Below are positions 6,431 through 34,760 of a stretch of 59,499 nt of DNA, one piece after another (the stretch's first letter is position 1; each line of letters opens with the position of its first letter). Source of the DNA: Romeriopsis navalis LEGE 11480. GTDB taxonomy: Bacteria; Cyanobacteriota; Cyanobacteriia; Leptolyngbyales; Leptolyngbyaceae. Made by a program: the position numbers and the translations under genes. Location of the stretch: contig NZ_JADEXQ010000027.1 of assembly GCF_015207035.1 (NCBI RefSeq), forward strand, positions 1-59,499, given 5' to 3'. The notes below the pieces were generated by a model, which saw only the letters and a list, made by a program, of their open reading frames with translations, searched no databases and had not been told where the DNA came from.

Positions 6431-6439
6431 ACAAAGGCA

Positions 6440-6494
6440 AAGATCAGCACTAGCTCAAGCCGTATCGCTCATGGCTTAAGCCGGTGCTGATCTT
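6440..6494. terminator. Long inverted repeat, likely bidirectional terminator
   Basis: A perfect 11-base pair of arms, AAGATCAGCAC (6440-6450) and GTGCTGATCTT (6484-6494), has a further inner AAGCC/GGCTT pairing. It lies between the convergent hpnG-like and GIY-YIG genes, so it can terminate from both sides. Confidence 0.65.
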
Positions 6495-6537
6495 GAATGT
6501 ATGCCAGCCTCTACTGAATGGTGATGCTTTATCCTGA

Positions 6538-7083: not shown

Positions 7084-7161
7084 GATGTGATTTATGCGAT
7101 CGCAGTAATATTCAGCAAAGTTGTAATTCAGCGCAATTGCACCAGAGCAAAGCCAATCGCA

Positions 7162-7482: not shown

Positions 7483-7649
7483 TCTATCCCTTCCAAATTC
7501 ACACTTTTGCAGCTGTGATTGAGATCGTAGTCGGATAAACCGATCAACTGGAATAACTTCCCCTAAATTTTAGGAATGACCAAAATTGGCGACAAAAAGG
7601 TGAAGTATCGTTGAGGTCACAAGGCTAGCTTGAATCCATCAACTGAGCT

Positions 7650-8696: not shown

Positions 8697-8793
8697 TTCC
8701 TAAATTTTCCAAAAACTCGATCGTGGGCGCGGGTCGCAAGGCCGCGGACAGAATTAACGGCTAACCACAATCACCAGTTAGTTGACCAAGCAA

Positions 8794-9186: not shown

Positions 9187-9280
9187 GATGAATTTTGCCA
9201 ACTATAGAAATGGATCAGAATTTAGCAAGCCACGCGCTTGCCTTAAAGCCAGGAAGTCTACGCAAAGCCCTAAAACGAAT

Positions 9281-9715
9281 TTATTTGCCCAGAATTGGCC
9301 GCTGTTGGTAATAGCGATATTTTAGGTAGTCAGCCACAATCTTGCCGTGGTCGAAACACAAATTTTTAGGAATCTCCCAAAGATTTAATACATGGGCTTG
9401 TTTCGCATCATCCCCGGCCTTGGGGGTGCCCGTGGCGGTGGCAATATACACCGTACTCAGCGTATGTTGGCGGGGATCACGATCCGGTGCGGAGTAAACC
9501 CCCAACAGTTCCACAAGTTCAATTTCGAGACCGATTTCTTCCATCGCTTCGCGTTTGCCAGCGGTTTCTGCGGATTCGCCATAGTCGATAAATCCACCGG
9601 GAATCGCCCAGCCCAAGGGTTCAAACATACGTTCAATCAAAATAATCGGGCGATCGGGACGATCAAGCATCTCGACGATAATATCGACCGTGGGCGCGGG
9701 ATTGCGGTAAGCCAT
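9281..9715 (-). CDS. Nudix hydrolase
   Basis: Nudix enzymes cleave nucleoside diphosphates linked to other moieties. The Nudix box is complete (GFIDYGESAETAGKREAMEE followed by IG), with REAMEE supplying the metal-binding glutamates. The protein begins AYRNPAPTVDIIVEM, typical of ADP-ribose pyrophosphatase-like members, and has SAPDRDPRQHTLSTVYIA after the box, which is also typical of that group. The ATG at 9715 is preferred to the TTG at 9721. Substrate specificity is not proven by sequence. Confidence 0.92.
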   Translation of the reverse strand: MAYRNPAPTVDIIVEMLDRPDRPIILIERMFEPLGWAIPGGFIDYGESAETAGKREAMEEIGLEIELVELLGVYSAPDRDPRQHTLSTVYIATATGTPKAGDDAKQAHVLNLWEIPKNLCFDHGKIVADYLKYRYYQQRPILGK

Positions 9716-9884
9716 AACCAAATATTCAAAGTAAATCTGTGTTGATTCTAGGTGATCCGGGAGGCTAGTCGGTGCAGATCACTGATTGGTTTAAGTTACG
9801 GGTGAGTTTGTGTGAGTCAGCATTTGGGCAATCTAGAAATAATGTTCAGGTTTGTGTCACACCATTTCGTTGCCCTTTGCCCCG

Positions 9885-11345
9885 ATGAAACTGATGCTGA
9901 CACGATCGCTCCAACGGCAAAATCCTGAAACCATCCTCCAACGATATTGGGGCTATCCCAAATTTCGCGCCAATCAAGCCGACATTATTACCGCACTTGT
10001 GACGCGTCGGGATGCGTTAGTGGTAATGCCGACAGGGGGTGGAAAATCGATTTGTTTTCAAGTCCCAGCGCTTTTACATCCAGGCTTAACGATCGTCATT
10101 TCCCCCCTCGTTGCCTTGATGGAAGATCAGGTCCAGGCGTTGCAATCACGCGGAATTCCGGCGGCAACCTTACATTATCAAATGGCCAAGTCCGATCGCC
10201 GCGATACGTTGTGGAAACTCGAACAGCAGCGCCTGAAGTTACTGTACATTTCACCCGAGACACTATTAAGTCAGCCAGTCTGGCAGCGACTCTGTCAAAA
10301 CGATTTACGGATTTCCAGTTTGGTTGTAGATGAAGCCCATTGTTTATCGCAGTGGGGCGATAGTTTCCGGCCAACTTATTTGCGATTAGGGGCCGTGCGA
10401 TCGGCGCTACTACAGCACAAACCACCAGGCACCAAAATCAATCTTGCCGCTTTTACCGCAACTGGGGATCTTGATGTCCAGCGATCGATTTGCCAAGGTT
10501 TACAACTGCAAAATCCCCAAGTATTTACCAGCTCACCCTACCGCCCAAATCTCCGACTTTCCGTGCAATACGTGTTCACGCCGCACCAACGTCAAACAAA
10601 ACTCAAACGATTTATTCAAGAGCAAAATGGCACTTCTGGGATAGTTTATGTCCGGACTCGGAATGAGAGTGAACGGTTAGCCGCGTGGCTCCAAACAGAG
10701 GGATTTGCGGTTGCGGCCTACCATGCAGGCTTAATGACTCAGGCGCGGCGGACGATCGAGCAGCAATGGCTGAATGACAAACTGCAATTTGTGATTTGCA
10801 CGAATGCCTTTGGCCTCGGGGTGGATAAAAGCGATGTCCGTTGGATTTGTCACTTCCATGCGCCACTCGAATTGAGCGAGTATCTCCAAGAAATTGGCCG
10901 GGCCGGACGGGATGGCAAAGTGGCCAATACATTGCTGCTGGCCAGTGAACCAACGGGACTTTTGGATAGCAGCGATCGCAAACGTTGGCGATACTTTGAG
11001 CAACAGGCTCAGAAGCAGCAAAAGCAAGCAATTAAACTTCTAGTACAACTGCCAAAATGCGGCGATGTGACTGAAATCTCACGCCAATTTCCCAAGACAG
11101 ACTTGGCCCTAGCCATTTTGCAGCAGCAGGGAAACTTAGTCTGGTATAACCCATTTGAATTTGAGATTCACAGCACCCAAATCAAGCAAGATAAAGCAGG
11201 GCGATCGATGCCCAATATGCCGAATTATCTGCGGGCCAAAGGCTGTCGATGGCGGTTTCTGCTGGCGGCTTTTGGGGTGGAAGATTTGGCCGCCAGTTGG
11301 TTCTGTGGGAAATGCGATCGCTGCCAGAAGCATGGCGATTCGTAG
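9885..11345 (+). CDS. recQ: Short RecQ-type DNA helicase
   Basis: This is a superfamily 2 ATP-dependent 3'-5' DNA helicase. Motif 0 (YWGYPKFRANQ), Walker A (MPTGGGKS, residues 48-55), DEAH box (149-152, VVDEAHCLSQWG) and motif VI (LQEIGRAGRDG) are all intact. The C-terminus has CRWRFLLAAFG followed by CGKCDRC, the four cysteines of the RecQ zinc subdomain. The protein ends there at about 486 residues and lacks both the winged helix and the HRDC domain of full-length RecQ, so it is a minimal form. ATG 9885 is chosen; an in-frame TTG at 9852 is less likely. It stands alone between minus-strand genes. Confidence 0.92.
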   Translation: MKLMLTRSLQRQNPETILQRYWGYPKFRANQADIITALVTRRDALVVMPTGGGKSICFQVPALLHPGLTIVISPLVALMEDQVQALQSRGIPAATLHYQMAKSDRRDTLWKLEQQRLKLLYISPETLLSQPVWQRLCQNDLRISSLVVDEAHCLSQWGDSFRPTYLRLGAVRSALLQHKPPGTKINLAAFTATGDLDVQRSICQGLQLQNPQVFTSSPYRPNLRLSVQYVFTPHQRQTKLKRFIQEQNGTSGIVYVRTRNESERLAAWLQTEGFAVAAYHAGLMTQARRTIEQQWLNDKLQFVICTNAFGLGVDKSDVRWICHFHAPLELSEYLQEIGRAGRDGKVANTLLLASEPTGLLDSSDRKRWRYFEQQAQKQQKQAIKLLVQLPKCGDVTEISRQFPKTDLALAILQQQGNLVWYNPFEFEIHSTQIKQDKAGRSMPNMPNYLRAKGCRWRFLLAAFGVEDLAASWFCGKCDRCQKHGDS

Positions 11346-11567
11346 CGCTTAGGATACTTGGTGAGGAGAATTCTGGTCATCGCGGTACTTTGATTTGAAT
11401 CAACTTACCCTTCCCAGCGCTGGCGATCGTAGGCTTGCAGAAGCTGCGATAAAATTCGGCCCAAGTTGCTTCTATCTAGGCATTTAACACAAGATTCTGC
11501 AGTGTTGATAGCATCACTATTAACGATGGCGCCTTACCTGCCTTTATCCCAGTATCGTCAAACATCC

Positions 11568-14198
11568 CTAACCCATTGCTTCTCGGACAATAATCACCGT
11601 ACAGTCACAGCGACGTGCAATCTCCTGGGGGATATTCCCCTTAATCGCTTGCTGCAACATGCCGGTACGGGTCGCACCTAACATCACCACATCACACTGA
11701 TGATGCATCGCTAAGTCAACGATCGCCTGCGCAATTGTGGGACTACAGACATGCAGGGATTGTACGGGGGCATCCACCCGCTCTTGCACCATCGTGATCG
11801 CCGACTTGAGTGCGTCAGATGACAACTCTGCCTGATTCGGCCGTGCGATATTACAGAGATAAATCGTGGGTGCCTGGCCTAACTGCATCAGCCCAGGCAA
11901 CAATCGCATGGCTTGCCGTGAATTAGGGCCACCGGCTGTCGGCATCAACCAACGTTCAAACGATGCTGGCGCTAACGCGGCAACCGGCAGCTTCACGAGC
12001 ATAATGCGACAGTTTGCCTGTTGGACCAGCGTATCCACGACATTACCAAAGACAAATCCAGGGGTACTACTGGTGCCACTCCAACCCATCACCAATAGGT
12101 CAATCAAACGTTCTTGAATGATTTCTAAAACCGTATTGGCAATGCTATGGCCAACCCGGACTTGAGTATGCACCGCAATTTCGTAGCGTTGACTGAGCTG
12201 CGCGGCTTGATCAACCAGCGCACGGCTAGCGGACGGATTAATCCAAGTTTCAGCCGGTGATAAGTGGGTTGGAATCAACAGAATATGAACACATTCAATC
12301 TCGTAGTGCTGCTTCTGGGCGATCGTCGCGGCTATTTTGAGTAATGTCCCTGCAGTTGCCGGATTAGCGATCGGCACCAATAAACGCCCCACCCCGATCT
12401 CCGGTTCTCGGGTTTGATAGACTAAATAGGACGGCTCAAACTGTTCACGATCGGCGTTTTCGCTACCTGTCAATTGCTCCGATTCCGCCCGGATAATGTC
12501 CGCCCGCGTAATGATGCCGACGAGCTTATGGTGATCAACCACGGGTAAACGACTAATTTGATAGCGATTCAGTAAATAGAGCACCTGACTTAAGGCGTCA
12601 TAGGGACGCACCGTCACCGGCTTCGCCGTCATAATCTCGGCAATGGTGGTCGTGGTCGCATCAAGCAAAGGATTACGGGTTAAGTCTGACTGCGTCAGGA
12701 TACCAATCAATTCACCTTCGGTCACCACCGGAAACCCACGATGATGGGAACTAAGGAACAACGCCTTAGCCTTCTCAACGGTGGTATCCGACGCAAGGGA
12801 TTCAACCTGACGTTGCATCAGATCGGCCGCGGTTAGATTCGCCAGCTTGGAGTCCGAGGGCGCGATCGTTTGGAGCTGAATGCCACGTTCCTGCAGCAAA
12901 TATTGATAAATCGAACCACTATGTAATGACTCACCGACCCAATAAGCTGTCACAGAACCGATCATCAACGGCAATACTAAATCAAAATCCCCAGTCATCT
13001 CAAACACAATAATAATCGCGGTGACTGGTCCACGCGTCACGGCACTAAAAAATGCCGCCATCCCCGTCAGCGCAAAAGTACTGGTAAAGCTGGCAGTACC
13101 CGTCATGCCGATGTCGAGGTGCGTCAGGCCAGCCAAGGTCGCTACTCCATAAGCAAACAGATAACCAAAGGTTGAACCGAGGACTAATGAGGGGGCAAAG
13201 ATCCCACCGGGGGCACCTGAGCCCGCCGCAAATAGGGTCAGAATCAGCTTGACGCCAAAGACTAAGGCCAATAGGGTGCCCGTAAATCCGCTCGTATGAC
13301 TGACTTCATGCAAACTCGCACTATCCCGCAGTGCGGCTGGGAGCAAAGCTGCCATAATTCCAGCAAAGGCACCGACGATCGCAATTTTTTTAGTAAAACT
13401 ATTCGGCATCCAGCGCTGCTGTAAGCGGCGACTTAGCAAAATACCCTTAACAAAAAACACGCCTAAAACACCTAACAAAGCACCAAGCAGCAGAAACAGG
13501 GGAATATGCACCAAATGAAACTCGGGCTGAATCTGCATCAGGCCCTGAGTGACGATCGATTCTCCTCCCAGAAAGCGCGAAACTACAGCACCGACAAAGG
13601 AAGCCAGAATCGCCGTGCCCAAAGTCATGCCCGAAACATCTTGGAGCAATTCTTCGATGACAAACAGTACGCCCGCGATCGGGGCATTAAAGCCTGCGGC
13701 CAAACCCGCCGCTGCACCCGCCGCAATCAGTTGCCGCCGATGCTCCGGTGAGGTGGGAAACCAGCGACTGAACTGCGCGGCGATCGCCGCCCCGATTTGC
13801 ACCGTCGGCCCTTGACGTCCCAGGGGAAATCCCGAACTGAGGTTAAGTAAGGTACTCAGAATTTTGGCGATTGCGAGTCGCAGATTTAGGCGGGTTGGCA
13901 ACCCCGCGAGGGCAATTTTAATTTCGGGAATGCCGCTGCCTGCCGCCTCTTTCGAGATTTGATCAATTAGCAGTCCCGATAATCCACCGCCGATCGCCCC
14001 AATTAGCGGCAGCACAATCCAAGCCGGATATTGGGTCGCGACATTCAAGCGCAAGCCACCCCAAAAGCCAACGCTCTGCTTCAGAAAAACCGCGGCCAAA
14101 CCCGAAAGTAAACCGATGACGCAGGCTTCAAAAACGGCAATTTGCGTTGGCCGAAAGGTTGCTTGAATACGCTTGAACCAATCGTCTTGCCAGGACAT
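11568..14198 (-). CDS. ClC-family anion channel/transporter with CBS pair and two universal-stress domains
   Basis: The 876-residue protein has a full ClC membrane core (about residues 20-430): GSGIPE (88-92), GRQGPTVQIG (127-136) and GSGAPGGIFAPSL (about 325-340) line the anion path. A CBS pair follows (about 455-575, ending LVGIITRADII). Two UspA-like domains come next, the second ending MLGATRTGMLQQAIKGN. The position of the gating glutamate (E148 in E. coli ClC) is glutamine, Q129. The internal proton glutamate equivalent is present (E183 in FVIEE). This could favour anion conduction without proton coupling, which is inference. ClC-CBS-USP fusions occur in other cyanobacteria. The start is the ATG at 14198. 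Confidence 0.93.
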   Translation of the reverse strand: MSWQDDWFKRIQATFRPTQIAVFEACVIGLLSGLAAVFLKQSVGFWGGLRLNVATQYPAWIVLPLIGAIGGGLSGLLIDQISKEAAGSGIPEIKIALAGLPTRLNLRLAIAKILSTLLNLSSGFPLGRQGPTVQIGAAIAAQFSRWFPTSPEHRRQLIAAGAAAGLAAGFNAPIAGVLFVIEELLQDVSGMTLGTAILASFVGAVVSRFLGGESIVTQGLMQIQPEFHLVHIPLFLLLGALLGVLGVFFVKGILLSRRLQQRWMPNSFTKKIAIVGAFAGIMAALLPAALRDSASLHEVSHTSGFTGTLLALVFGVKLILTLFAAGSGAPGGIFAPSLVLGSTFGYLFAYGVATLAGLTHLDIGMTGTASFTSTFALTGMAAFFSAVTRGPVTAIIIVFEMTGDFDLVLPLMIGSVTAYWVGESLHSGSIYQYLLQERGIQLQTIAPSDSKLANLTAADLMQRQVESLASDTTVEKAKALFLSSHHRGFPVVTEGELIGILTQSDLTRNPLLDATTTTIAEIMTAKPVTVRPYDALSQVLYLLNRYQISRLPVVDHHKLVGIITRADIIRAESEQLTGSENADREQFEPSYLVYQTREPEIGVGRLLVPIANPATAGTLLKIAATIAQKQHYEIECVHILLIPTHLSPAETWINPSASRALVDQAAQLSQRYEIAVHTQVRVGHSIANTVLEIIQERLIDLLVMGWSGTSSTPGFVFGNVVDTLVQQANCRIMLVKLPVAALAPASFERWLMPTAGGPNSRQAMRLLPGLMQLGQAPTIYLCNIARPNQAELSSDALKSAITMVQERVDAPVQSLHVCSPTIAQAIVDLAMHHQCDVVMLGATRTGMLQQAIKGNIPQEIARRCDCTVIIVREAMG

Positions 14199-19672: not shown

Positions 19673-21274
19673 ATGAAGTCTGAAACAGAGCAACGTTATC
19701 GGGCCATGCCTGCGGAAACAGCGGCAGCGGTATTGAAATTTCGATCGCTCCAAAACCAACTGCGCGATCGCTGGCGCAATATCCAAGAATTCGATACCAG
19801 CGCCGCCGACATCATTGTCCTACCTTCACTCAGCCTTGATCAGCGAGAACTGAATAAAGTTGAAGGCTGCTATCACTACGAAGAACGACTGTTATTTTCG
19901 CTAATTCGTCTGCGAAATCCCCGCACCCGCGTGGTTTATATCACCTCACAGCCGATTCACCCCAGCGTCATCGACTACTACCTCCAGCTATTGCCAGGCA
20001 TTCCATTTTCCCATGCCCGCGATCGTCTACTCCTGCTCTCCACCTACGATGCTTCGACCCAAGCCTTGACCCAGAAAATCCTCGATCGCCCCCGCTTGCT
20101 CGATCGCCTGCGCTACAGCATCAACCCCGATCGGGCCTACATGATTTGCTATAACGCCACCGAGTTAGAACAAACGCTATCACTGCAACTCAATGTGCCA
20201 CTGTTTGCCGTTGACCCCGCCTTACTGCATTGGGGCACCAAGTCCGGCAGCCGCCAAATCTTCGCCGAAAGTGGGATTCAATTTCCCGATGGTAGTGATT
20301 TGGTGTGGAACGCCGCTGACTTAGCCGCAGAGATTGACGCACTGTGGCAGCGGCAACCAGATTTACAGCGTGTGGTGGTCAAACTAAATGAAGGATTTTC
20401 CGGGGAGGGCAATGCACTATTAGATTTGCGACCGTTGCAGGATGGTTCTACGGTGAGCCACGATCGAGTCCAACGCATTCAAGCCCATTTAGCCAATCTC
20501 AAATTTGAAGCCAAGGGCGAGTCTTGGACAAATTTTCAGACCAGAATTAGCGAATTAGGCGCGATCGTTGAGCAGTTTGTCGAGGGTGAAGCTAAACGAT
20601 CGCCCAGCGTTCAACTGCGCATTACCCCCGCGGGTGAAGTGGAGTTGCTCTCGACCCATGATCAAATCTTGGGCGGACCCAACGGGCAAATCTATCTGGG
20701 CTGTCGGTTTCCTGCGGATGAAACGTATCGATCGCAGCTCCAGGAAATGGGCCAGCGTGTCGGCGAAGTCTTGGCGAAAAAAGGTGTACTAGAGCGTTTC
20801 GGGGTAGATTTTGTGGCGGTGCCCAAAGACGATGGCTGGGACCTCTGGGCGATCGAGATCAACCTCCGCAAAGGCGGCACCACCCACCCGTTTATGACGC
20901 TGAAATTCCTGACCAATGGTGATTACGAAGCCGAGAGCGGACTGTTTCATGGCCGCAATCGTCAAGCCAAATACTACCTCGCCACCGATAACCTGCAAAA
21001 ACCACATTACCGGGGACTCTTACCCGATGACTTGATGGATATCATTGCCGAAAATCAACTGCATTTCGACACCAGTACCGAAACCGGCATGGTATTTCAT
21101 CTGATGGGTTGTCTCTCAGAATTTGGTAAATTAGGCGTCACCAGCATTGGCAATTCGCCCGAGCAAGCCGAGGAAATCTATCAGCGATTAGTCCAAGCCT
21201 TGGATGCCGCAACTAAAGTGCCACAGCAGCTTCAGACCTACCACTTATCCATGCAGTGGAATGGCATGCACTAA
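19673..21274 (+). CDS. PGM1-like ATP-grasp peptide ligase-related protein
   Basis: The 533-residue protein resembles the cyanobacterial relatives of the pheganomycin peptide ligase PGM1, an ATP-grasp enzyme that makes peptide bonds. An N-terminal region (about 40-190) carries DIIVLPSLSLDQRELNKV and GCYHYEERLLF. The ATP-grasp part is seen in RVVVKLNEGFSGEGNAL (lysine and glycine-rich loop), VEQFVEGEAKRSPSVQLRI, and LWAIEINLRKGGTTHP with the E-x-N metal-binding pair. The substrate is unknown; it need not be a peptide. The ATG at 19673 has no strong Shine-Dalgarno site. A pseudokinase gene begins 229 bp downstream; no link is proven. Confidence 0.75.
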   Translation: MKSETEQRYRAMPAETAAAVLKFRSLQNQLRDRWRNIQEFDTSAADIIVLPSLSLDQRELNKVEGCYHYEERLLFSLIRLRNPRTRVVYITSQPIHPSVIDYYLQLLPGIPFSHARDRLLLLSTYDASTQALTQKILDRPRLLDRLRYSINPDRAYMICYNATELEQTLSLQLNVPLFAVDPALLHWGTKSGSRQIFAESGIQFPDGSDLVWNAADLAAEIDALWQRQPDLQRVVVKLNEGFSGEGNALLDLRPLQDGSTVSHDRVQRIQAHLANLKFEAKGESWTNFQTRISELGAIVEQFVEGEAKRSPSVQLRITPAGEVELLSTHDQILGGPNGQIYLGCRFPADETYRSQLQEMGQRVGEVLAKKGVLERFGVDFVAVPKDDGWDLWAIEINLRKGGTTHPFMTLKFLTNGDYEAESGLFHGRNRQAKYYLATDNLQKPHYRGLLPDDLMDIIAENQLHFDTSTETGMVFHLMGCLSEFGKLGVTSIGNSPEQAEEIYQRLVQALDAATKVPQQLQTYHLSMQWNGMH

Positions 21275-24978: not shown

Positions 24979-26559
24979 ATGCGCACGAAAAATAATGAAG
25001 GTCTCGTACTTGTTTCGAGCCTGGTTGTCACGATTCTCCTATTAGGCATCGGTGGCACGTTGGTTTTACGATCGGGCATGGGCAAGCATCTATCGACGCC
25101 ACCCCCAAGCTCTCGCTATTCCAGCACCGCCCATCACCCCAATGCCAAGGTCACCCTGTCAGTTTTAGGGGATACCTTTAGTGGCTATTCAACCCTGCGG
25201 GCCAACACCTTTCAGAGTGCCTTAATCGAACGGGGAGTCGGGGTCAAATACGATGATGAATTCAATCAACTCACCCGCGCCCGCGCCATCAACAATGGCA
25301 AAGCGGACATTATCGTTACATCACTCGATCAGTTTCTACGACACAAACCCCAGGGGAAAATTGTCGGTCTTATCGATCGGACCGTTGGTGCGGATGCCGT
25401 CGTTCTGAACACCCGCCGGTTCCCTCAGCTCAAGTCCTTAGGCGATCTCGAAAAACTCGTCTCTCAACGGCGCCACCAAGGCCAAACAACCAAAATTGTG
25501 TTTGCGGGTGACACCCCCAGTGAGTTTCTCGCGATGGTGCTGGATACTTCCTTCGACAACTTCAATCTGGCTGATCTAGAAATTGCCACCGTTGCCGATG
25601 CCAGCTTAGCCACACAGAAACTCAAGGATGATGCGAATGTCGCCGTTGCCATCCTGTGGGAACCGTTTGTCCATCAGGCCAAACAACAAGGCAATACCGT
25701 CGTGCTTAGCAGCGCGGATGTGCCCAAAACGATCGTCGATGTGATCGTCGCGAGCCAGCCGATCATGAATTCGCAACCCAAAGCGGTACAGGCATTTATC
25801 GAAACCTACTATCAGCGGATTGATGCCACCTTGCAAGACCCAAACCAGCTTGTGCGCCAAATTGCCCTTGATGGCAAACTCACTCAATCCGAAGCCAAAG
25901 CCGTCAATCGCGGTATTCAATTCTTCACTTCCGTCGAAGCCCAGGAATGGATGAAATCCGGTCAGCTCGACCAGCGCATTAAGTCAATTTCCAGCATCTT
26001 GGCCCTCGCGGGGAAAGGGACACCGGTAACAGACAATCCGCAATCACTCTATTCGGCAATCTACCTCTCGCCAGTGGCAAAACGCACAAAAACCTTGATG
26101 CAAGCAATCGCGATCGATAATCCGGAATTAGCAAAACGACTGCGCCGTCGATCGACAGCTCCCGTACCACAGCCCAAAACGGTAGCCATCAATCAAGCAC
26201 CAGCGGTCGGACATCTGAAAGTGCGCGGAGAAGTGAAATTTCAAACAGGCTCCGCCGAATTAACTGGCGATAGCGCGGCCACCTTACAACAGCTCGCACA
26301 GCAGATTCGGGAATTTAGCCCGAATACGATCGGCATCCAAATCCAGGGTCACACCAGCCGGACTGGAACTGCGGCCTTAAATCAAAAATTATCGGCCCAA
26401 AGAGCAGCAGCAGTGGAACGATACCTGCAAACACAGCAAGTCAACCACTACTTAACCTCTGAGGGTTTAGGCTACTCGAAGCCGCTACCGGGAAGCGATC
26501 CAGCTTCCCCACTCAATCAGCGCACAGTGATTCGCTTAGTGCGAATTGGGGGCGCGTGA
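24979..26559 (+). CDS. Substrate-binding-protein-like domain fused to OmpA peptidoglycan-binding domain
   Basis: The 526-residue protein has an N-terminal membrane anchor (about 9-30: VLVSSLVVTILLLGIGGTLVL). A periplasmic type II binding-protein-like region follows (about 55-330: VTLSVLGDTFSGYSTLRANTFQ, ADIIVTSLDQFL, ADAVVLNTRRFP, VAILWEPFV), similar to NMT1/TauA-type ABC solute receptors. An OmpA-like C-terminus (about 410-525: VKFQTGSAELTGDSAATLQQLA, IQIQGHTSRTG, LNQKLSAQRAAAVERYL) is expected to hold peptidoglycan. No permease or ATPase lies nearby, so it is more likely a sensor or scaffold than a transporter part. GGAG precedes the ATG. It overlaps the next gene by four bases (GTGA). Confidence 0.85.
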   Translation: MRTKNNEGLVLVSSLVVTILLLGIGGTLVLRSGMGKHLSTPPPSSRYSSTAHHPNAKVTLSVLGDTFSGYSTLRANTFQSALIERGVGVKYDDEFNQLTRARAINNGKADIIVTSLDQFLRHKPQGKIVGLIDRTVGADAVVLNTRRFPQLKSLGDLEKLVSQRRHQGQTTKIVFAGDTPSEFLAMVLDTSFDNFNLADLEIATVADASLATQKLKDDANVAVAILWEPFVHQAKQQGNTVVLSSADVPKTIVDVIVASQPIMNSQPKAVQAFIETYYQRIDATLQDPNQLVRQIALDGKLTQSEAKAVNRGIQFFTSVEAQEWMKSGQLDQRIKSISSILALAGKGTPVTDNPQSLYSAIYLSPVAKRTKTLMQAIAIDNPELAKRLRRRSTAPVPQPKTVAINQAPAVGHLKVRGEVKFQTGSAELTGDSAATLQQLAQQIREFSPNTIGIQIQGHTSRTGTAALNQKLSAQRAAAVERYLQTQQVNHYLTSEGLGYSKPLPGSDPASPLNQRTVIRLVRIGGA

Positions 26560-28319
26560 TCCAGCAATCGTTGAGCGCGACTTTGCCCCGATCCACCAAT
26601 TTTTCTCCCATCACCATGTGCATACCGGCATTTGACTCCGAACGGCAGCGATTGCTCACCGAAGCGGTCAGCCTCACAGTCCAAATCAGTCGCCTCGACC
26701 GCTGTCCCCGCCAACAGCGACTGCGCGATCGCCTGACCCAACTCCAGCATCACCTAACGGGCTTTAGTCATCCCATCGGCACCCAGCCACTGCTACCCAG
26801 CGAAATCCCCCCGGAAGTCCGTCAATGTTTCGTTCAAGCGGTGCAATTATTGCCCATCTATCGCACGCTGGGCAGCAACGCTCAAACCTACGGCACTTGG
26901 CAATCGACCACATTATCCCAATATCGTGCGGATACGATTCCAGTGAGTTGGTCGAGCGATGCGTTTTCCGCCCAGCTAATGGCCATGTTTGAGCTACAGA
27001 CCACTGAGCAAACAACGATCACCACAACCCGAACGAGCACACAAGCCAACATCAACCAGCATCAAAGGGTGATTCAGGCCTTACTCGATCGATACAATCA
27101 GCTAACAACACCATCCGACAATCTCGCGTTATTCCAGGCCTTAGTCGGTGAATTGCCGATTCCCATCGCCGCACTACACACCGTTGCGACTCCGAGCCAA
27201 GTGATTTTTTTGTTGGACTATGAAGGCGATCGTCTGCGGCGGAATGAACAGTGGGACAGTCTCAATGTCGGTGAGCAACAAGCGGTACAAACATTTCTCC
27301 AGACAATGACAACATTCGAGTTTAGTCAGTTTGCCAACTTTCCCACCTTTGGTAAATTCAATGCGACAGTCCTACGGCCGGATTTATGTCAAGCACTGGC
27401 TCAAGTAACCGGGGTTTCGATGTTCCAAGTGGTTCGCATTCTGCAACAGGCGATCGGGCTGGTCAAACTGACCAAAGCCGAAACATTTCTGGTCCACGAT
27501 ATTTGTGGTCATGGATGGCAGCATTTACTCACCCAGTTTGGCGGCGATTATGCAATTTTGGCCCTAGCGGATCAGCCGCTCAAACCCGGATTGGCCGCTT
27601 ATACAGCAGTGGGACCGATCGCACTGCGAGAAGTGATTCAGCGGGAAGTCGCTCAATTGTCAGGCGATCGCATTCGCATCGATATTGAACTGGCGCGACG
27701 CTTTTTCCATGGCGAGGTAACGCAGCGGTTGACTTGCTTGTTGACCCACCTGATCGGGGAAATGCTGGCGGACTTTCATGAGTTTAAATGGGTCTGGCAA
27801 AATCCAGCGGACGCGGCACAGTTGCCCTCATCATCGACATTTCACACCCTACCAGCCAAGTTAGACCTTAGCATCTTGGATGTAGAATTTCTGTTTGCGC
27901 GATTGCTGCACCCTTTACTCAATCTCACAATTCACCCCCAAACCGATTCACTCTTAGAGCAATCGCTCCTAACTGAGTGGGGCCAGTTTGATACCGCCAC
28001 TCGCCGACAACTCAAACGATCGTTGCTTCAGTTGCATCATATTTTCTGGGAAGAATATCTGACCCACTATCAATCGATCGCCACACAACCCAATGGCCAA
28101 TTGGGGCAGATCATCAGCAATCTACTCTATATTCAAAACACCAGCAACGCACTATATCGCAGTGATTGGGCCAAGACAGATTTACCCTTCCAAGATCTTT
28201 TATCACTGTTCATTGGCTGCTATTGTTCCGAGAATGCCTACGATCGCTTTTGGCAACTCGACGAAATCCTGGCCCAATATTTCATTCCCTGCTGGTTACA
28301 GCTTCCGGGCTGTAACTAA
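26556..28319 (+). CDS. Unknown protein with HDxCGH motif, coupled to SBP-OmpA gene
   Basis: I do not recognise this 587-residue protein. It starts with GTG inside the GTGA that ends the previous gene, so it is translationally coupled to the SBP-OmpA fusion. It is rich in Gln, Thr and Leu, has no signal peptide or membrane span, and looks mostly helical. The striking element is FLVHDICGHGWQ near residue 311, where H314, D315, C317 and H319 could bind metal. The HDxxGH arrangement recalls the iron-binding motif of aromatic amino acid hydroxylases, but the rest of that fold is not evident. A later LIGEMLADFHEFKW segment offers Glu and His. The function is open; a role with its envelope partner is the simplest inference. 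Confidence 0.65.
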   Translation: MIQQSLSATLPRSTNFSPITMCIPAFDSERQRLLTEAVSLTVQISRLDRCPRQQRLRDRLTQLQHHLTGFSHPIGTQPLLPSEIPPEVRQCFVQAVQLLPIYRTLGSNAQTYGTWQSTTLSQYRADTIPVSWSSDAFSAQLMAMFELQTTEQTTITTTRTSTQANINQHQRVIQALLDRYNQLTTPSDNLALFQALVGELPIPIAALHTVATPSQVIFLLDYEGDRLRRNEQWDSLNVGEQQAVQTFLQTMTTFEFSQFANFPTFGKFNATVLRPDLCQALAQVTGVSMFQVVRILQQAIGLVKLTKAETFLVHDICGHGWQHLLTQFGGDYAILALADQPLKPGLAAYTAVGPIALREVIQREVAQLSGDRIRIDIELARRFFHGEVTQRLTCLLTHLIGEMLADFHEFKWVWQNPADAAQLPSSSTFHTLPAKLDLSILDVEFLFARLLHPLLNLTIHPQTDSLLEQSLLTEWGQFDTATRRQLKRSLLQLHHIFWEEYLTHYQSIATQPNGQLGQIISNLLYIQNTSNALYRSDWAKTDLPFQDLLSLFIGCYCSENAYDRFWQLDEILAQYFIPCWLQLPGCN

Positions 28320-28483
28320 AACACGGCATCACTTTTCTCCCCTTCTGAGCAATTCCCCCGAATAACTTGGTGCCATTCACGAATGACTAGTCCACAATAG
28401 AGTCTGGATTGGAATACCGTAATGCACTAACATGCCTTTTCCGTGCATTTGTACTGTTTTATTGTTTTATCGAGGTTTGCGTT

Positions 28484-30070
28484 GTGTTGGCAACAACTAT
28501 GGCAGCGGCAGCCGAACTAGCAGTCGAAAATAACGTCGCGATCGAAAGCAATATTAAGGCTTTCGTGCTCGTACTTTCCGTCTCGCTAGGGGTCGCAACA
28601 TTGCCCCAAATGATCAGTTGGCTGCGCCAAATTCCCTATACCTTACTGCTGGTCATCGTCGGCCTGGGTTTAGCGTTTTTGGATATCCGCTTGGTCGATC
28701 TATCACCAGAACTAATTCTGTCAATCTTCCTACCACCGCTATTATTCGAAGCGGGCTGGAACTTACGATGGCAGGGGTTAAAAAAAGATTGGCTCCCGGT
28801 GACGCTGTATGCCCTTTTGGGTGTCGTTATCGCCATTCTGGGCATTGCCTTTGGTGTGGGCCAATTGACCAACCTCTCCTTTGCGAGTGCACTGCTAGTG
28901 GGGGCCAGCCTCTCCGCCACCGACCCCGTATCGGTCACCGCGCTCTTCCGGGAATTAGGAGCCGACAAACGCCTCACGACCTTGATGGAAGGCGAAAGCC
29001 TATTCAATGACGGCATGGCCGTTGTCGCCTTTGGGTTTCTCTTGGGAATTCCTCTGGGCACGGCGCATCTATCAGTCCAGTCCAGTATTCTGGAACTCGT
29101 CTCAGTTGTGGGGATTGGGGCCGCGGTCGGCTGTCTGATTGGGTTTGGTATTTCCTACCTGACGCAGCGATTTGACTTGCCCCTAGTTGAGCAGTCCTTA
29201 ACCCTAGTTTCCTCCTATGCGGCCTACCTACTGACTGAGGACTTGGGCGGCTCTGGCGTCATTGCGGTGGTGAGCACTGCGATGATTTTGGGAAACTTTG
29301 GTTCACGCATTGGCATGAACCCCCGCACCCGAATTATCGTCAGTGAATTTTGGGAGTTTTTGGCATTCTTCGTCAACTCCATCGTGTTTCTGCTAATTGG
29401 GGACCAAGTTCGCTTCGAGGTGCTCGCTGCCAATCTGCCGACAATCGCGATTACCATCATCGCCATGACCATTGCACGAGCAGTTTCGGTATTTGCTTTG
29501 GGGGGGCTTAGTAACTGGCTTGCTGATTCAGATATTCCGATCGGCACCCAAATTATTTTGTGGTGGGGCGGTTTACGGGGTTCGGTTTCGATTGCGCTGG
29601 CCCTGAGTATTCCCGCCGTATTAGCCGATCGTGAAGTGATTATCGCCACTGTCTTTGGCGTCGTCCTATTCACCCTGCTCGTCCAAGGCTTAACCACCAA
29701 ACCCTTGCTCGAAAAGCTGGGTCTCGTTGGGAATCAGGCAATCCAGGAAGAATATTCTGAAACCTTGGCCCGCCAGATCGCCCTGAAGCGATCAATGAAA
29801 CATCTAGAAAACGCCGAATCCCGCCCTGGTATTGATGAGGAGTTTGTGCGTTACCAGGAAGCGTTAATCAAAGGTGAAATTGCCCGGTTACAGGAAAAAA
29901 TTGAGAAACTCAAAAACGAATACCCCGATTTGGAGGTATTTATCGAAAAGCAACTCCGCGATGAGCTATTAGCCGTTGAGGCCGATGCCTACGCCGAATT
30001 TATCTCGGCCGGTTGGCTCAACCGGGAACTCGCACCGTTCTTAAACGATGAACCAAGTTCTGTTCACTAA
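28484..30070 (+). CDS. CPA1-family Na+/H+ antiporter (NhaP/NhaS-like)
   Basis: This inner-membrane sodium/proton exchanger has about 12 spans. Diagnostic parts are LPPLLFEAGWNLRW, GASLSATDPVSVTALFRELG (the ATDP segment at the ion site), EGESLFNDGMAVVAFG with the essential FND aspartate, and WWGGLRGSVSIALAL with the conserved arginine. A cytoplasmic C-terminus of about 100 residues is charged and helical. I prefer the GTG at 28484, which has GAGG eight bases before it; a TTG at 28409 or ATG at 28499 are alternatives. Its position next to gghA/ggpS groups it with salt tolerance. A strong terminator follows at 30188-30228. Confidence 0.92.
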   Translation: MLATTMAAAAELAVENNVAIESNIKAFVLVLSVSLGVATLPQMISWLRQIPYTLLLVIVGLGLAFLDIRLVDLSPELILSIFLPPLLFEAGWNLRWQGLKKDWLPVTLYALLGVVIAILGIAFGVGQLTNLSFASALLVGASLSATDPVSVTALFRELGADKRLTTLMEGESLFNDGMAVVAFGFLLGIPLGTAHLSVQSSILELVSVVGIGAAVGCLIGFGISYLTQRFDLPLVEQSLTLVSSYAAYLLTEDLGGSGVIAVVSTAMILGNFGSRIGMNPRTRIIVSEFWEFLAFFVNSIVFLLIGDQVRFEVLAANLPTIAITIIAMTIARAVSVFALGGLSNWLADSDIPIGTQIILWWGGLRGSVSIALALSIPAVLADREVIIATVFGVVLFTLLVQGLTTKPLLEKLGLVGNQAIQEEYSETLARQIALKRSMKHLENAESRPGIDEEFVRYQEALIKGEIARLQEKIEKLKNEYPDLEVFIEKQLRDELLAVEADAYAEFISAGWLNRELAPFLNDEPSSVH

Positions 30071-30248: not shown

Positions 30249-32714
30249 CTAACAAGCCGCTTCCAACAAAATCCCCTGGCCATCATGGAGTTCGATCGAC
30301 TTCACATCTTCAATACTCTCGATCGCTAATCCCGGTGAAGCAATCACGACTTTCCAGTTTTCTAGATCAAGTTGCAACCAATCCCCCGGTGTCGCAATCA
30401 CTGACTCCCCGCCCATATGGGCAATCAATGCCACTTGCTTAGTCGCGGGGAAGCCATTTTGACTATTGTTGCGAATCCCCACAAAGATTGTCCGATCGCC
30501 TTCGGTTAAACGGTTGAACCGATCGAGTCCCGAGAGATTATTGCGCAGCCAGGAATTTTTCCGCCGGTACTGGCGCAGTTGGTAGTTGTATTTGGTCAGC
30601 TGTGGGTCAAGTTCGTCGGCATAGTGACAAACCCGGCAATATTCGTGCTTATCCTCCATAAACGCCATCGCAAATTGGCGAATTAAGGGCACGTCCAAAT
30701 ACTGGATAAATCGCTTAAATAGTTCACTCCCATCGGCTTCAGCCAATTCCGTTTGGCACAGCACAATCACCTTCTCAATGTCATATTCCGTCTCCGTCAT
30801 ACCCCGATTGAGAATGACCAAAAACTCGACTAGCTGATCGTAGGAATCAAAGCCCAGAGCTTTGAGCTGGGTAAAGAGATGCGTCTCGCCATAGTGGGCC
30901 GGATTCACCTGCCAATCGAGGAAGCCTTTCTCCTCCGAAACCACCTTGACCCCATAACGCTCATCCGTATTGCGGAAGAAGCCCCAAGCCGCATGCATCA
31001 GGACATTAATAAAGTCCATTGGCAAACCGGGCGAGAAACCGTAGACCCAAAGGTTGGTCGCGGGATTATCGTAGGCATTTTTCAGAACTTCCGGTAGCGT
31101 TTCGCCCAGATTCCAGTTAATGTCTGCATCCACGTCAATTTGATTACCCCGGCGCACCGTATCGTGGTTACCACAGCCAGTAATCCAGCGATCGCCCTGA
31201 TACATCACCTCCGTCACACGTTTCCACTTTATATTCCAGAACCCCTTCAAGGTCGGCGTATTGTGGGCAAAGATCAGTGGCCCCCACTGGTAACTATCCG
31301 GTCGCTGTTCGATCAGATCGCGGTAGGTAGATTTTTCTTCCCAGCCTTTCTGGGGCCACGGTCGGCCATCTTCAAAGATCGTAAATAACAGCCGTTCACA
31401 ACCATGGATCTTCTGAACGATGTCACTCATGGCGAATAAATAGCCATCGTCATATTCAATGTCGCCGGATAGAGGATTAAAGAAGCGGAAATCTTGACCG
31501 CCATCAACCCGAATCCCATCAACGCCAGTGTTGATCTTGCGGCGGTGCATTTCAAGCAGGATGGATCGAACGATCGGATGCTGATGGCTCACATCCTGGC
31601 CGTACATATTCGGTCCTTGGAAACACTGCGCCGTCATTAGTTGCAAGGCTTGGTTATCCGCATGACCATACACCAAATCGAAAATTACATCGATCGGCCC
31701 CTGGGAAAAGTTGTGCAGCGTCGCGATGAAATCAATCATCTCATGGGGCCGCAGGCTGCCGAGAATCGCCGGATTCGTCGTCGAACCACCTAGCAACGGA
31801 ATGTCATAGCCCCAGTTCTGAGTATTGGGTTTCCGCAAAATCGCCTGGACCGGCACCGTCGGCACATGGGTGCCCTTATCGCCAAACAGCGATCGATCAA
31901 TTTCGAAGAAGTCCCGTTCCCAGTCGACATCCTCGACTCGGTATTCGATCGTCGGCTCCGTTGGCAGCAATTGAACCGCATCATAGCCAATATAGTTTTG
32001 CTCGGCGGCGGTCAACGGTTCATGATTCTCCAGCTTGTCGGAAATTCGCTGGTAGGTCTTGGTCAAGGCTTCGAGGGTCCCCTCAGCCGAGGCCGTGCCG
32101 ACGTGAATTTGCAGAATATTCACCGGCGCTTTGACCCGCGGGGCGCTCTCCCCTTCCGTCACTTGCGCTGACTGCGCCCAGCGACGGAAATAATCCAAGT
32201 CCTTGCGCGTCCGTTGCATCTGGCGAACATCATAGAGTTCCGCTGGGGCAAACACACCATAGGGCAACGAATAGGGCACAATGTCCCGGACTTTATTCAG
32301 TTGGTCATACAAATTATCGCGGTAGCGCAACCAATAAAATGAGCCCGCTTTATCCGGTGTCCCGGCGTGCATGCCTTCAACGACGCCCCAGACAAATTCG
32401 CCCTGCTGCACCATCGGCACCGCATCATACTGAAACTCAACAATCTGTTCCGGTCGGCGGAAATCAATATCATCGATCGGAGTAAAAACTTCGAGATAAA
32501 TATCCCGTTGGCTTTGGATGATTTGTCCCGCTAATTCCGGCACCCAGAAACCAACCTCAGTCAGTCCATCTTCACGGTAATGGGCACCTAAGCGTCGGAC
32601 GAGCTGCCGCGATCGATCTAAATAATTTTGCTTGGAAACAGCGATCGCCTTCACGTCGCTGACCAAAACGGCAGTTTCATCTTCAACTAAACGAATCATA
32701 AATTTCTCAGGCAT
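30249..32714 (-). CDS. gghA: Glucosylglycerol hydrolase
   Basis: The 821-residue protein matches cyanobacterial glucosylglycerol hydrolase (Synechocystis Slr1670), which degrades the compatible solute glucosylglycerol when salt stress is relieved. The GH13-like catalytic motifs can be seen: GVDGIRVDGGQDFRFF (nucleophile Asp), LLFTIFEDGRPWPQ (acid/base Glu) and TGCGNHDTVRRG (third Asp). The N-terminus (MPEKFMIRLVEDE) begins at ATG 32714. It is divergent from ggpS across 549 bp, so the synthesising and degrading genes share a control region. Confidence 0.92.
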   Translation of the reverse strand: MPEKFMIRLVEDETAVLVSDVKAIAVSKQNYLDRSRQLVRRLGAHYREDGLTEVGFWVPELAGQIIQSQRDIYLEVFTPIDDIDFRRPEQIVEFQYDAVPMVQQGEFVWGVVEGMHAGTPDKAGSFYWLRYRDNLYDQLNKVRDIVPYSLPYGVFAPAELYDVRQMQRTRKDLDYFRRWAQSAQVTEGESAPRVKAPVNILQIHVGTASAEGTLEALTKTYQRISDKLENHEPLTAAEQNYIGYDAVQLLPTEPTIEYRVEDVDWERDFFEIDRSLFGDKGTHVPTVPVQAILRKPNTQNWGYDIPLLGGSTTNPAILGSLRPHEMIDFIATLHNFSQGPIDVIFDLVYGHADNQALQLMTAQCFQGPNMYGQDVSHQHPIVRSILLEMHRRKINTGVDGIRVDGGQDFRFFNPLSGDIEYDDGYLFAMSDIVQKIHGCERLLFTIFEDGRPWPQKGWEEKSTYRDLIEQRPDSYQWGPLIFAHNTPTLKGFWNIKWKRVTEVMYQGDRWITGCGNHDTVRRGNQIDVDADINWNLGETLPEVLKNAYDNPATNLWVYGFSPGLPMDFINVLMHAAWGFFRNTDERYGVKVVSEEKGFLDWQVNPAHYGETHLFTQLKALGFDSYDQLVEFLVILNRGMTETEYDIEKVIVLCQTELAEADGSELFKRFIQYLDVPLIRQFAMAFMEDKHEYCRVCHYADELDPQLTKYNYQLRQYRRKNSWLRNNLSGLDRFNRLTEGDRTIFVGIRNNSQNGFPATKQVALIAHMGGESVIATPGDWLQLDLENWKVVIASPGLAIESIEDVKSIELHDGQGILLEAAC

Positions 32715-33263
32715 AGCAGACGTACCAGGGCTATTCAGGACGATCGGGACAGGACAAAATCAGTCAACGGATCAAACGGGCCAACGATGCCGAATTCCGG
32801 CAGGCAGTTGACCCGCCGGAATCCGGCATTCGCAATGAACAAAGCGAAAATCAATCAAAGACTAAACCCCATAAATTATGGATATTTAGTCAAGCTAGCG
32901 CGCGCAACACTGAAGTGACGTACATGTTGCTACAAAATATTTAACGCCTCTTACACAATAATCTTGCCCATTTATATAACTAATTGATCACACTTTTGTT
33001 GCGTTCTGCAAACTTTCTGGAATACTCCATCTAGCTTGAGAAAACGTTTCAAATCTTCACTTGATTTTCAGCGCAGCATCATTGTCTTTTGGGGCGTCTA
33101 CGCGCGCTGACTGGTCCGAACTTTGCGCCGTTCTCAAACCGCGATATTCTGGGTAAATGACTGACTTAGGCAACCTGGCCTGGCAAGCAGTTTGACTGCT
33201 GTGGGAAATCGCGCTTTCGAGCCGCCGCAGCCGCCACATGTACAACAGGTAAGGAGCACATCC
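32715..33263. promoter_or_regulatory. Divergent gghA-ggpS control region
   Basis: The 549-bp spacer must hold both promoters. A striking inverted repeat, TGCCGAATTCCGGC (32788-32801) with GCCGGAATCCGGCA (32815-32828), one mismatch, lies 75 bp before the gghA start. An AT-rich tract with TATATAA lies at about 32930-33030. A 12-codon ORF starts at 33157, 107 bp before ggpS. In Synechocystis ggpS is controlled by the small protein GgpR encoded at its promoter; I do not see a clear ggpR homologue here. AAGGAG just before 33264 supports the ggpS start. Confidence 0.55.
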
Positions 33264-34760
33264 ATGAGCGAAAACACCAAGTCTTCACTCGTTATTCTCT
33301 ATCACCGCGAACCCTACGATGAGGTGGTGGAGAATGGTAAAACCGTTTATCGGGAAAAGAAAAGTCCCAATGGGATCCTGCCAACACTGAAGAGTTTCTT
33401 TGCGAACGCCCAACAGAGCACCTGGGTCGCCTGGAAGCAAGTAGATGACAGCAACCGCGATTCCTTCCAATCGCGCATGACGATCGATGGCTTAGGCGAT
33501 CGTTGTGTCGTGATGCGCGTACCCCTGGAGGAACAGCAAGTCCAGGACTTTTACTACATCACCTCGAAAGAGGCCTGCTGGCCATTGCTGCACTCGTTCC
33601 CGTGGCAATTTGAGGAATCTTCTTCGAACTGGGATAACTTCCGTGAAGTGAATAAGGTGTTTGCCCAGGCAGCGATCGATGCGGCGGCAGATGATGCACT
33701 GATTTGGATTCATGACTACAACTTGTGGTTAGCGCCGTACTTCATTCGGCAACAGCGGCCGAATGCCAAAATCGTCTTCTTCCACCACACGCCGTTCCCC
33801 AGCTCAGATGTGTTCAATATCCTGCCTTGGCGCGAGGAAATTGTCGAAAGTCTGTTGAGCTGCGATGTTTGTGGTTTCCATATTCCGCGCTACTCGGAAG
33901 ACTTCGTTGGCGTGGCTCGCAGTATGCGCGAGGTAGAAGTGGTCAAACGCGAACCCGTGACCGAGAATTTTGTCCCCCGAGGCTTGGCGCTCTCGGAGCC
34001 GGATATGGTTACACAACTGCGCTACAAAGGGCGAATTGTGCATCTTTCGGCTTCCCCGGTGGGAACTAATCCCGGATTTGTGCGCAGTGTGGTGGCAGAC
34101 GAAGAGACCAAAGCCAAAGTCAAAAAAATTCGCGCTGATCTGGGCGATCGTAAACTCATCGTTGCGGCCAGTCGGGTGGACTACGTCAAAGGCATTATCG
34201 AACTGTTGGATTGCTATGAGCGGCTGCTGATTCGACGACCGGAAATGCTCGGCAAAGTTAGCTTGGTCGTCGCAGTCGCACCTGCTGCCAGTGGGATGCG
34301 GATTTACAGTGAAACCCAAGAGGCGATCGAGAAAACCGTAGGCCGGATCAATGGTCGATTTAACCAATTGGATTGGCGACCGATCGACTTTTACACCAGC
34401 AACCTCGGGATTAAGGGTATCAACGCCTTCTATAAAGCAGCAGATATTGCTTGGATTACACCGTTGCGCGATGGTCTTAACCTAGTGGGCAAAGAATACG
34501 TTGCGGCGCGTGGTGATGACGGTGGCGTGTTAATTCTGTCCGAGTTTGTCGGTTCATCGGTTGAGCTGCCAGATGCAGTGCCGGTGAATCCCTATTCCAC
34601 GGAATCAATGGATAAGGCGTTGGATATTGCTTTGGCAATGCCGATCGAGGAACAAAAGGAACGCATGGCGCGTATGACGAAGTCAGTTGACACCTACGAC
34701 GTGGATTGGTGGGCCGAACACTTGATGGAACCGGCAAAGACTACAGGTGACAACGCATAG
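33264..34760 (+). CDS. ggpS: Glucosylglycerol-phosphate synthase
   Basis: GgpS transfers glucose from ADP-glucose to glycerol 3-phosphate, the first step of synthesis of the salt-protectant glucosylglycerol. It belongs to the trehalose-6-phosphate synthase-like GT20 family: LIWIHDYNLWLAPYFIR, FFHHTPFPSSDVFNILPWR and VAASRVDYVKGIIELL (nucleotide/phosphate-binding) correspond to OtsA motifs. ITPLRDGLNLVGKEYVAA near the C-terminus is the conserved donor-binding loop. Family members are about 500 residues; this one has 498 from the ATG at 33264, which has AAGGAG upstream. The matching phosphatase (ggpP/stpA) is not in the window. Confidence 0.95.
   Translation: MSENTKSSLVILYHREPYDEVVENGKTVYREKKSPNGILPTLKSFFANAQQSTWVAWKQVDDSNRDSFQSRMTIDGLGDRCVVMRVPLEEQQVQDFYYITSKEACWPLLHSFPWQFEESSSNWDNFREVNKVFAQAAIDAAADDALIWIHDYNLWLAPYFIRQQRPNAKIVFFHHTPFPSSDVFNILPWREEIVESLLSCDVCGFHIPRYSEDFVGVARSMREVEVVKREPVTENFVPRGLALSEPDMVTQLRYKGRIVHLSASPVGTNPGFVRSVVADEETKAKVKKIRADLGDRKLIVAASRVDYVKGIIELLDCYERLLIRRPEMLGKVSLVVAVAPAASGMRIYSETQEAIEKTVGRINGRFNQLDWRPIDFYTSNLGIKGINAFYKAADIAWITPLRDGLNLVGKEYVAARGDDGGVLILSEFVGSSVELPDAVPVNPYSTESMDKALDIALAMPIEEQKERMARMTKSVDTYDVDWWAEHLMEPAKTTGDNA

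What the first reader, a model, noticed from the sequence alone, without database searches (positions are those of the whole stretch)
24979..28319. SBP-OmpA fusion coupled to an uncharacterised HDxCGH protein: candidate new two-gene system
A periplasmic solute-receptor-like domain fused to an OmpA wall-anchor overlaps by four bases (GTGA) with a 587-residue protein I cannot assign, carrying FLVHDICGHGWQ. The overlap argues for stoichiometric co-expression. No transporter parts are nearby. HDxxGH resembles the iron site of aromatic amino acid hydroxylases, but the rest of that fold is not seen. Together this could be an envelope sensor with a metal-dependent enzyme.
Basis: partly seen in the sequence, partly recalled or inferred. 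Interest (0 to 1): 0.66.

Follow-up and report, generated by a model that had tools for sequence, protein, structure and literature searches.

The report
Envelope receptor plus unknown putative metalloenzyme
Two neighbouring genes of a cyanobacterium make a membrane-anchored solute receptor and a member of an unnamed protein family with a metal-site-like motif; the two genes keep turning up together in two bacterial phyla, so they probably work together on a still unknown small molecule.

Summary
S (24979-26559) has an N-terminal hydrophobic segment, an NMT1/THI5-like solute-binding domain and an OmpA-like domain. H (26556-28319) has no significant match in Pfam, NCBIfam, PHROGs or PDB sequences. 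Its AlphaFold2 model (pLDDT 87.9) has no PDB match at E<=0.001.

S is present in 23 of 25 cyanobacterial and 3 of 4 planctomycete genomes with H. S directly precedes H in four cyanobacteria. In planctomycete G560 H follows S inside a run of solute-binding, permease, ATPase and VWA genes. But 19 of the 23 cyanobacteria keep the two apart.

Corrections: the GTGA overlap is doubtful, because an ATG 60 bases later fits homologues better; C317 is W in all 26 other sequences; the OmpA domain has Ser where the (recalled) peptidoglycan-binding Asp should be. H314, D315, E402, D406 and E409 are invariant. Membership of the aromatic amino acid hydroxylases fails by sequence.

Best reading: receptor plus cytosolic metalloenzyme in one pathway (confidence 0.4). 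No activity, metal or ligand is shown.

The parts
24979..26559 (+). S: membrane-anchored SBP-OmpA fusion, 526 aa
   Evidence: 49-54% identical long matches in 18 of the other 114 genomes searched (one of them, G048, split over two frames)
25000..25068 (+). N-terminal hydrophobic segment of S (residues about 8-30), predicted membrane anchor (orientation inferred)
   Evidence: hydropathy 2.35 over 19 residues
25228..25848 (+). NMT1/THI5-like solute-binding domain of S (residues 84-290)
   Evidence: PF09084 2.9e-7
26239..26490 (+). OmpA-like domain of S (residues 421-504)
   Evidence: PF00691 5.2e-16
26356..26358 (+). S460, at the place of the Asp that binds peptidoglycan in canonical OmpA domains (role recalled); Arg475 is kept
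   Evidence: Ser or Arg in 15 of 15 S-type proteins aligned, Asp in the 2 companion SBP-OmpA2 proteins aligned
26556..28319 (+). H: 587-aa protein of an unassigned family, no membrane segment predicted
26616..28319 (+). H from the alternative ATG start (M21), which fits cyanobacterial homologue starts and the model better
27495..27512 (+). HDICGH motif, residues 314-319 (HDxxGH; C317 is W elsewhere)
27759..27788 (+). E402-x3-D406-x2-E409-x-K411 on the helix 377-415
   Evidence: invariant in 26 of 26 sequences that reach it; helix
27828..27836 (+). SSS, residues 425-427 (S426 and S427 invariant in 26 of 26)
27858..27881 (+). KLDLSILD, residues 435-442 (D437 and D442 invariant in 26 of 26)

Best explanation
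S is a periplasmic solute receptor held in the inner membrane by its N-terminal segment. H is a cytosolic metal-dependent enzyme whose site is built from H314, D315 and H319 on one helix and E402, D406 and E409 on a long second helix. The two serve one pathway: S detects or collects a small molecule (an NMT1/THI5-type ligand, identity unknown) and H acts on it, or on its product, inside the cell. In Planctomycetota S is part of a receptor/VWA/ABC-importer cluster and in one genome H sits inside it; cyanobacteria keep S and H, as a rule without importer genes alongside. Shown: domains, conservation, co-occurrence, recurrent adjacency, cluster membership. Inferred: cellular locations, metal, catalysis, shared ligand.
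For: S and H are neighbours on one strand, S before H, in the window, L088, L132, L133 and L120. S in 23 of 25 cyanobacterial H+ genomes (in G477 only residues 1-314 of S) and 3 of 4 planctomycete ones. Hypergeometric, not corrected for kinship: 13 H+ all within 19 S+ of 115 relatives p=5.6e-13; 9 H+ genera within 15 S+ of 66, p=1.4e-7; 2 of 3 H+ within 6 S+ of 294 Planctomycetota p=0.001. In G560 H lies in a run SBP, permease, ATPase, SBP-OmpA2, VWA, S, H. In 7 of 7 planctomycete S loci compared S has SBP-OmpA2 and VWA beside it. Of 20 columns invariant in 26 domain sequences 13 are H, D, E, K, R, Q or S, in the blocks HDxxGHxxQ, ExxxDxxExK, SS and LDxxxxD, as in an active site.
Against: 19 of the 23 cyanobacteria with both genes keep them apart, with 3 to 10 kb of S-free sequence upstream of H, Mb apart in G005, G025 and G474. 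G225 (99% complete) has H without full-length S; G475, a MAG, too. Six of 19 S+ relatives lack H. H is in only 1 of the 7 planctomycete S clusters compared. S faces the periplasm and H the cytosol by prediction, so they need not touch. In G477 the MAG copy has P for H319 and a truncated S; in G005 H is split over two frames.
Confidence: 0.4

Rival explanations
1. Sensor and stress-signalling module: S is a receptor that reports envelope or solute stress, not a collector, and H is its regulatory or signal-making enzyme, in the style of VWA/TelA (Ter-type) stress systems.
For: S-type proteins lie beside VWA genes in 7 of 7 planctomycete loci compared and beside VWA and TelA on the two Vibrio plasmids viewed. 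A second S in G467 is fused behind a DUF4388 domain (PF14332 7.2e-7), a domain of cyanobacterial signalling proteins (recalled). Of 31 cyanobacterial S regions only the one of G389 has permease and solute-binding genes of this kind nearby.
Against: TelA: no match in the window genome and none over the cut-off in 115 relatives; three sub-threshold hits are in genomes without H. Six of 7 planctomycete clusters include permease and ATPase, which points to transport. No signalling partner of H is known.
Confidence: 0.22
2. H is a remote non-haem iron oxygenase of aromatic amino acid hydroxylase type, with H314, H319 and E402 as the facial triad.
For: Same local motif H[DE]xxGH, then an invariant Glu after an Arg, then a conserved Ser pair, in the same order as in the 10 hydroxylases of A4. 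A PhyH-type oxygenase gene precedes H in L094.
Against: No PF00351 match among 24 members, none in the window genome, hhalign probability 0.4% against 0.3% for an unrelated control, no PDB match at E<=0.001, His-to-Glu spacing 83 residues against 40 in A4.
Confidence: 0.12
3. H is not an enzyme: the conserved residues hold a structural fold or a binding surface, and H is a scaffold or ligand-binding adaptor for S-dependent signalling.
For: No activity known; mostly helical model; several invariant positions (F262, P263, F265) look structural.
Against: 13 of the 20 invariant domain columns are H, D, E, K, R, Q or S in short motifs, across two phyla at 22-31% identity to the window.
Confidence: 0.14
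4. No functional link: both genes belong to the accessory genomes of the same lineages and adjacency arose by chance.
For: Adjacency is a minority state; many H+ genomes are Leptolyngbya-like or Halomicronema-like (titles); statistics are not corrected for kinship.
Against: Five adjacent cases with the same order and strand, spread over the H tree (5 changes of the label, at least 3 forced by well-supported branches), one in another phylum inside the S cluster; co-occurrence seen separately in a second phylum.
Confidence: 0.12

Closest known systems
'phosphate ABC transporter substrate-binding/OmpA family protein' (record annotation on Vibrio plasmids)
   Same: Same order of solute-binding and OmpA-like domains over 80-84% of S at 24-26% identity; same Ser at the OmpA Asp site in the two aligned.
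   Different: In the two viewed, it sits between VWA and an unknown gene in an ABC/TelA cluster; the window's S stands without these and is paired with H.
Aromatic amino acid hydroxylases (PF00351)
   Same: H[DE]xxGH motif and the order His, His, Glu, Ser pair.
   Different: No significant sequence match or PDB fold match, different His-Glu spacing, other conserved blocks.
Ter/TelA stress systems (jumbo phage paper PMC7824862, passages only)
   Same: TelA and VWA parts also occur in the Vibrio S clusters.
   Different: OmpA and substrate-binding do not occur in that paper's main text; no TelA in the window genome.

Membership tests
SBP/OmpA fusion proteins | NMT1/THI5-type solute-binding domain | tested here: met
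   PF09084 31 bits, cut-off 20.5
SBP/OmpA fusion proteins | C-terminal OmpA-like domain | tested here: met
   PF00691 59.2 bits, cut-off 27.2
VWA/SBP-OmpA/ABC gene cluster | VWA, second SBP-OmpA, permease and ATPase genes beside S | tested here: not met
   none in the window nor in 27 other cyanobacterial S regions; L065 and L127 have one ATPase hit each and L134 has ATPase, permease and solute-binding hits (31 regions, several short); VWA and SBP-OmpA2 met in 7 of 7 planctomycete loci
Peptidoglycan-anchoring OmpA domain | Asp and Arg that bind the peptide of peptidoglycan (roles recalled) | tested here: not met
   Asp is Ser460, Arg475 kept; Ser or Arg in 15 of 15 S-type proteins aligned
Aromatic amino acid hydroxylase | PF00351 domain | tested here: not met
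Aromatic amino acid hydroxylase | H-x4-H with the facial Glu about 40 residues on (Glu role recalled) | tested here: not met
   H-x4-H met; the next Glu invariant in the whole family is 83 residues on
Aromatic amino acid hydroxylase | catalytic-domain fold | tested here: inconclusive
   no such match among the rows shown, which proves nothing
Aromatic amino acid hydroxylase | iron and pterin dependence | not testable with these tools
   needs purified protein
Ter/TelA stress system | TelA present | tested here: not met
   no PF05816 match in the window genome, 0 of 115 over the cut-off
ABC importer | permease and ATPase linked to the receptor | tested here: not met
   no match in the window to the two ATPase and two permease queries; met in planctomycete L120, L122, L167-L170 (in L167 the ATPase is on the other strand)

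The most novel reading that the evidence does not exclude
H founds a new metalloenzyme family with a fold not represented in the PDB, and is the cytosolic catalytic partner of a periplasmic SBP-OmpA receptor; planctomycetes keep the larger receptor/VWA/importer system from which cyanobacteria retained a two-gene core.
Probability: 0.3. Interest if true: 0.72.

Novelty: new variant of a known kind. Interest (0 to 1): 0.55.

Why it matters
I found no description of SBP-OmpA/VWA clusters or of an HDxxGH family in the papers searched (open-licence PMC papers only). H ties an unnamed protein family with an active-site-like signature to such clusters in two phyla, names the residues to mutate, and points to the genomes where the link can be tested. 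If H is an enzyme, its substrate would probably reveal the ligand of the receptor.

Tried and rejected
Sequence families for H: Pfam, NCBIfam, PHROGs, PADLOC and PDB sequences gave nothing consistent (PHROGs was tried with the window protein only). Weak Cas8g/Csx17 hits in 2 of 24 members (best E 0.0036 in PADLOC, 0.021 in NCBIfam) did not appear among 10 H proteins scanned singly in NCBIfam (8 of the 24 members and 2 others, so the two members were not found again) and are taken as noise. Plasmid and phage collections hold no H at the limits used.

Fold: the full model and domain 190-460 against PDB by Foldseek, a second look by VIA-align 2, and the full model against viral models: nothing at E<=0.001; best Z 6.9 on the helical stretch 15-71. 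The domain model is weaker (pLDDT 80.1, pTM 0.69). No library of predicted cellular proteins was on hand, so fold novelty is open.

Other neighbours: one search compared 30 fetched regions and the window. Apart from S and H, 12 gene clusters are shared by 3 to 6 regions. The largest (6 regions) has a histidine-kinase-like member in the window (54569-55684); one in 5 regions was not identified; the others were not followed up. One search listed neighbours in 12 loci, read by eye.

The H tree has 25 rows, leaving out G043, G098, G474 and G475; G477 is its C-terminal contig piece only. 10 of its 22 inner branches are poorly supported, the window and two planctomycete rows are long branches, and the adjacency label is no more clustered than shuffled labels (500 of 500 as low).

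Rows dropped or kept before counts: G099 (partial S, 1.2e-27) not counted as S+; G048 (S split in two frames) counted; G279 (2.3e-5, 49 residues with stops) not counted as H+; G389 (partial S) counted only in the alternative figure; G670 (weak S-like hits, best 3.0e-13) counted as S-negative; G477 (S residues 1-314) counted as S+.

Literature: the lipocone paper PMC12419801, jumbo phage paper PMC7824862 and conflict-system paper PMC7159879 were seen as listing and passages only; the passages do not describe S or H.
Full report
What is there. The window holds S, 24979-26559, and H, 26556-28319, on the + strand. S has a hydrophobic N-terminal segment (19-residue hydropathy 2.35), an NMT1/THI5-like solute-binding domain at residues 84-290 and an OmpA-like domain at 421-504. 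H has no 19-residue window at or above 1.6 and no family: Pfam, NCBIfam, PHROGs and PDB sequences give nothing significant, nor does a profile against the PDB (best E 2) or any consistent Pfam, NCBIfam or PADLOC hit among 24 members.

The overlap. It would start H 30 residues before the first conserved block; the ATG at 26616 (M21) lies 10 before it. In 9 homologues the longest possible ORF starts 5 to 10 residues before that column, and several more have an in-frame M at -9 or -10; planctomycete ORFs and a few others can start 16 or more before. Residues 1-20 are the only segment of 3 or more with pLDDT under 50. With ATG the gap is 56 nt; in L088 it is 2 nt and in L120 327 nt. I regard the overlap as unproven.

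Distribution. Among 115 genomes (the window's own included) H is in 13 and S (E at or below 1.3e-116) in 19; all 13 H+ genomes are S+. In a spread of 386 cyanobacteria H is in 4 (a fifth, G279, is a 49-residue hit with stops) and S in 3, plus the partial S of G389; three genomes have both. A scan of named genome contigs gave 20 loci, 18 cyanobacterial and 2 planctomycete. Seven of the 18 repeat genomes, judged by equal contig lengths and profile scores; 11 are further genomes, of which 10 have S (in G477 residues 1-314 only) and G475 does not; nor does G225. In total S is in 23 of 25 cyanobacterial H+ genomes. In 294 Planctomycetota H is in 3 and S in 6 (E at or below 1e-30), shared by 2. G478, reached from the contig scan, has H and an S-like gene (1.2e-57), and G670 only weak S-like hits, so S is in 3 of 4. 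Hypergeometric figures, uncorrected for kinship, are 5.6e-13 (genomes), 1.4e-7 (genera) and 0.001 (Planctomycetota).

Adjacency. S directly precedes H in the window, L088, L132, L133 and planctomycete L120. In L132 and L133 H is cut by the contig end; its rest is probably on L085 and L093 of the same genomes (for L133 and L093 the ends overlap in sequence). In the other 19 cyanobacteria with both genes they are apart: 3.2 to 10 kb upstream of H hold no S, and in G005, G025 and G474 they lie megabases apart on one contig. On the H tree the adjacent label needs 5 changes, at least 3 forced by well-supported branches, so it is either old and often broken or repeatedly formed; planctomycete and cyanobacterial rows fall on two sides of a 100/100 branch.

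The larger cluster. In L120 the run is NMT1 solute-binding protein 1632-2936, permease 2970-3824, ATPase 3916-4812, a second SBP-OmpA protein 4849-6603 (OmpA just over its cut-off, NMT1 below it), VWA 6787-7659, S 7684-9267, H 9595-11358, unknown 11680-12552. In all 7 planctomycete S loci compared, S has the second SBP-OmpA gene and VWA next to it. Solute-binding, permease and ATPase genes are also there in 6 of 7 (in L167 the ATPase is further off on the other strand); L164 ends at the contig edge. Two Vibrio plasmids show the same kind of cluster with TelA. H is in only one of these clusters; in G479 and G478 H is elsewhere in the genome. Of 31 cyanobacterial S regions, the window included, 28 have no match to the cluster's other proteins, L065 and L127 have one ATPase hit each, and L134 (partial S, G389) has ATPase, permease and solute-binding hits (several regions are short contigs).

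Residues. In 26 H sequences of two phyla H314, D315, H319, Q322, R391, E402, D406, E409, K411, S426, S427, D437 and D442 are invariant. A 27th, partial copy in a MAG (L133) keeps H314 and D315 but has P at 319. C317 is W in all 26 others. H398 and E387 vary in the planctomycete sequences. The full model has mean pLDDT 87.9 and pTM 0.88, block means 91-92 around both motifs, with HDxxGH on helix 305-325 and the acidic motif on helix 377-415.

Is it an aromatic amino acid hydroxylase? The motif H[DE]xxGH and the order Glu then Ser pair recur in the 10 such proteins aligned as A4, three of them only partial and one with SG for SS. But no member hits PF00351, hhalign gives probability 0.4% against 0.3% for the unrelated S control, His-Glu spacing differs, and no significant fold match appears. 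Membership fails by sequence; similar chemistry is not excluded.

The OmpA domain. The Asp that in canonical OmpA domains binds peptidoglycan (recalled) is Ser460 here and Ser or Arg in all 15 S-type proteins aligned, while the two companion SBP-OmpA2 proteins aligned keep Asp; Arg475 is kept in all 17. A wall-anchor role for S is therefore uncertain.

Mechanism. Shown: domains, conservation, co-occurrence, recurrent order. Inferred: S faces the periplasm, H is cytosolic, H binds metal, both serve one small molecule. The planctomycete importer genes favour a transport-and-conversion reading; VWA and TelA neighbours and the DUF4388 fusion in G467 favour a sensing reading. I put 0.4 on receptor plus metalloenzyme in one pathway.

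Verdict. The H family and its tie to SBP-OmpA systems are worth an experiment, though nothing here shows activity.

Noticed in passing
window 33192-34760 + and 28409-30070 +: Glucosylglycerol-phosphate synthase (TIGR02398, 734.5 bits, cut-off 569) lies about 5 kb downstream, and a CPA1-type Na+/H+ antiporter (TIGR00831 272 bits, just under its cut-off of 279.6) directly downstream of H; the 821-aa gene at 30249-32714 had no NCBIfam hit. Looks like a salt-adaptation neighbourhood.
   Followed up: partly
L124:9074-11425: Second S in G467 fused behind a DUF4388 domain (783 aa): a one-protein cytoplasmic-domain/receptor fusion.
   Followed up: partly
L094:8630-9340: PhyH-type dioxygenase gene directly upstream of the planctomycete H homologue in G478 (PF05721 2.3e-13).
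   Followed up: no
L133:1070-2056: S of G477 ends after 328 residues without the OmpA domain, directly before H; degenerate gene or assembly fault.
   Followed up: no
L146, L147, L120, L122, L164, L167-L170: Recurring cluster of two different SBP-OmpA proteins, VWA, solute-binding protein, permease and ATPase, with TelA on the Vibrio plasmids; no description found in the papers searched.
   Followed up: partly
window 19673-21274: 533-aa protein weakly like the ligase BesA (1.3e-46, 159 bits against a cut-off of 750).
   Followed up: no
L138:595-2379: 594-aa aromatic amino acid hydroxylase-like protein with an insertion and a long C-terminal extension in planctomycete G496.
   Followed up: no
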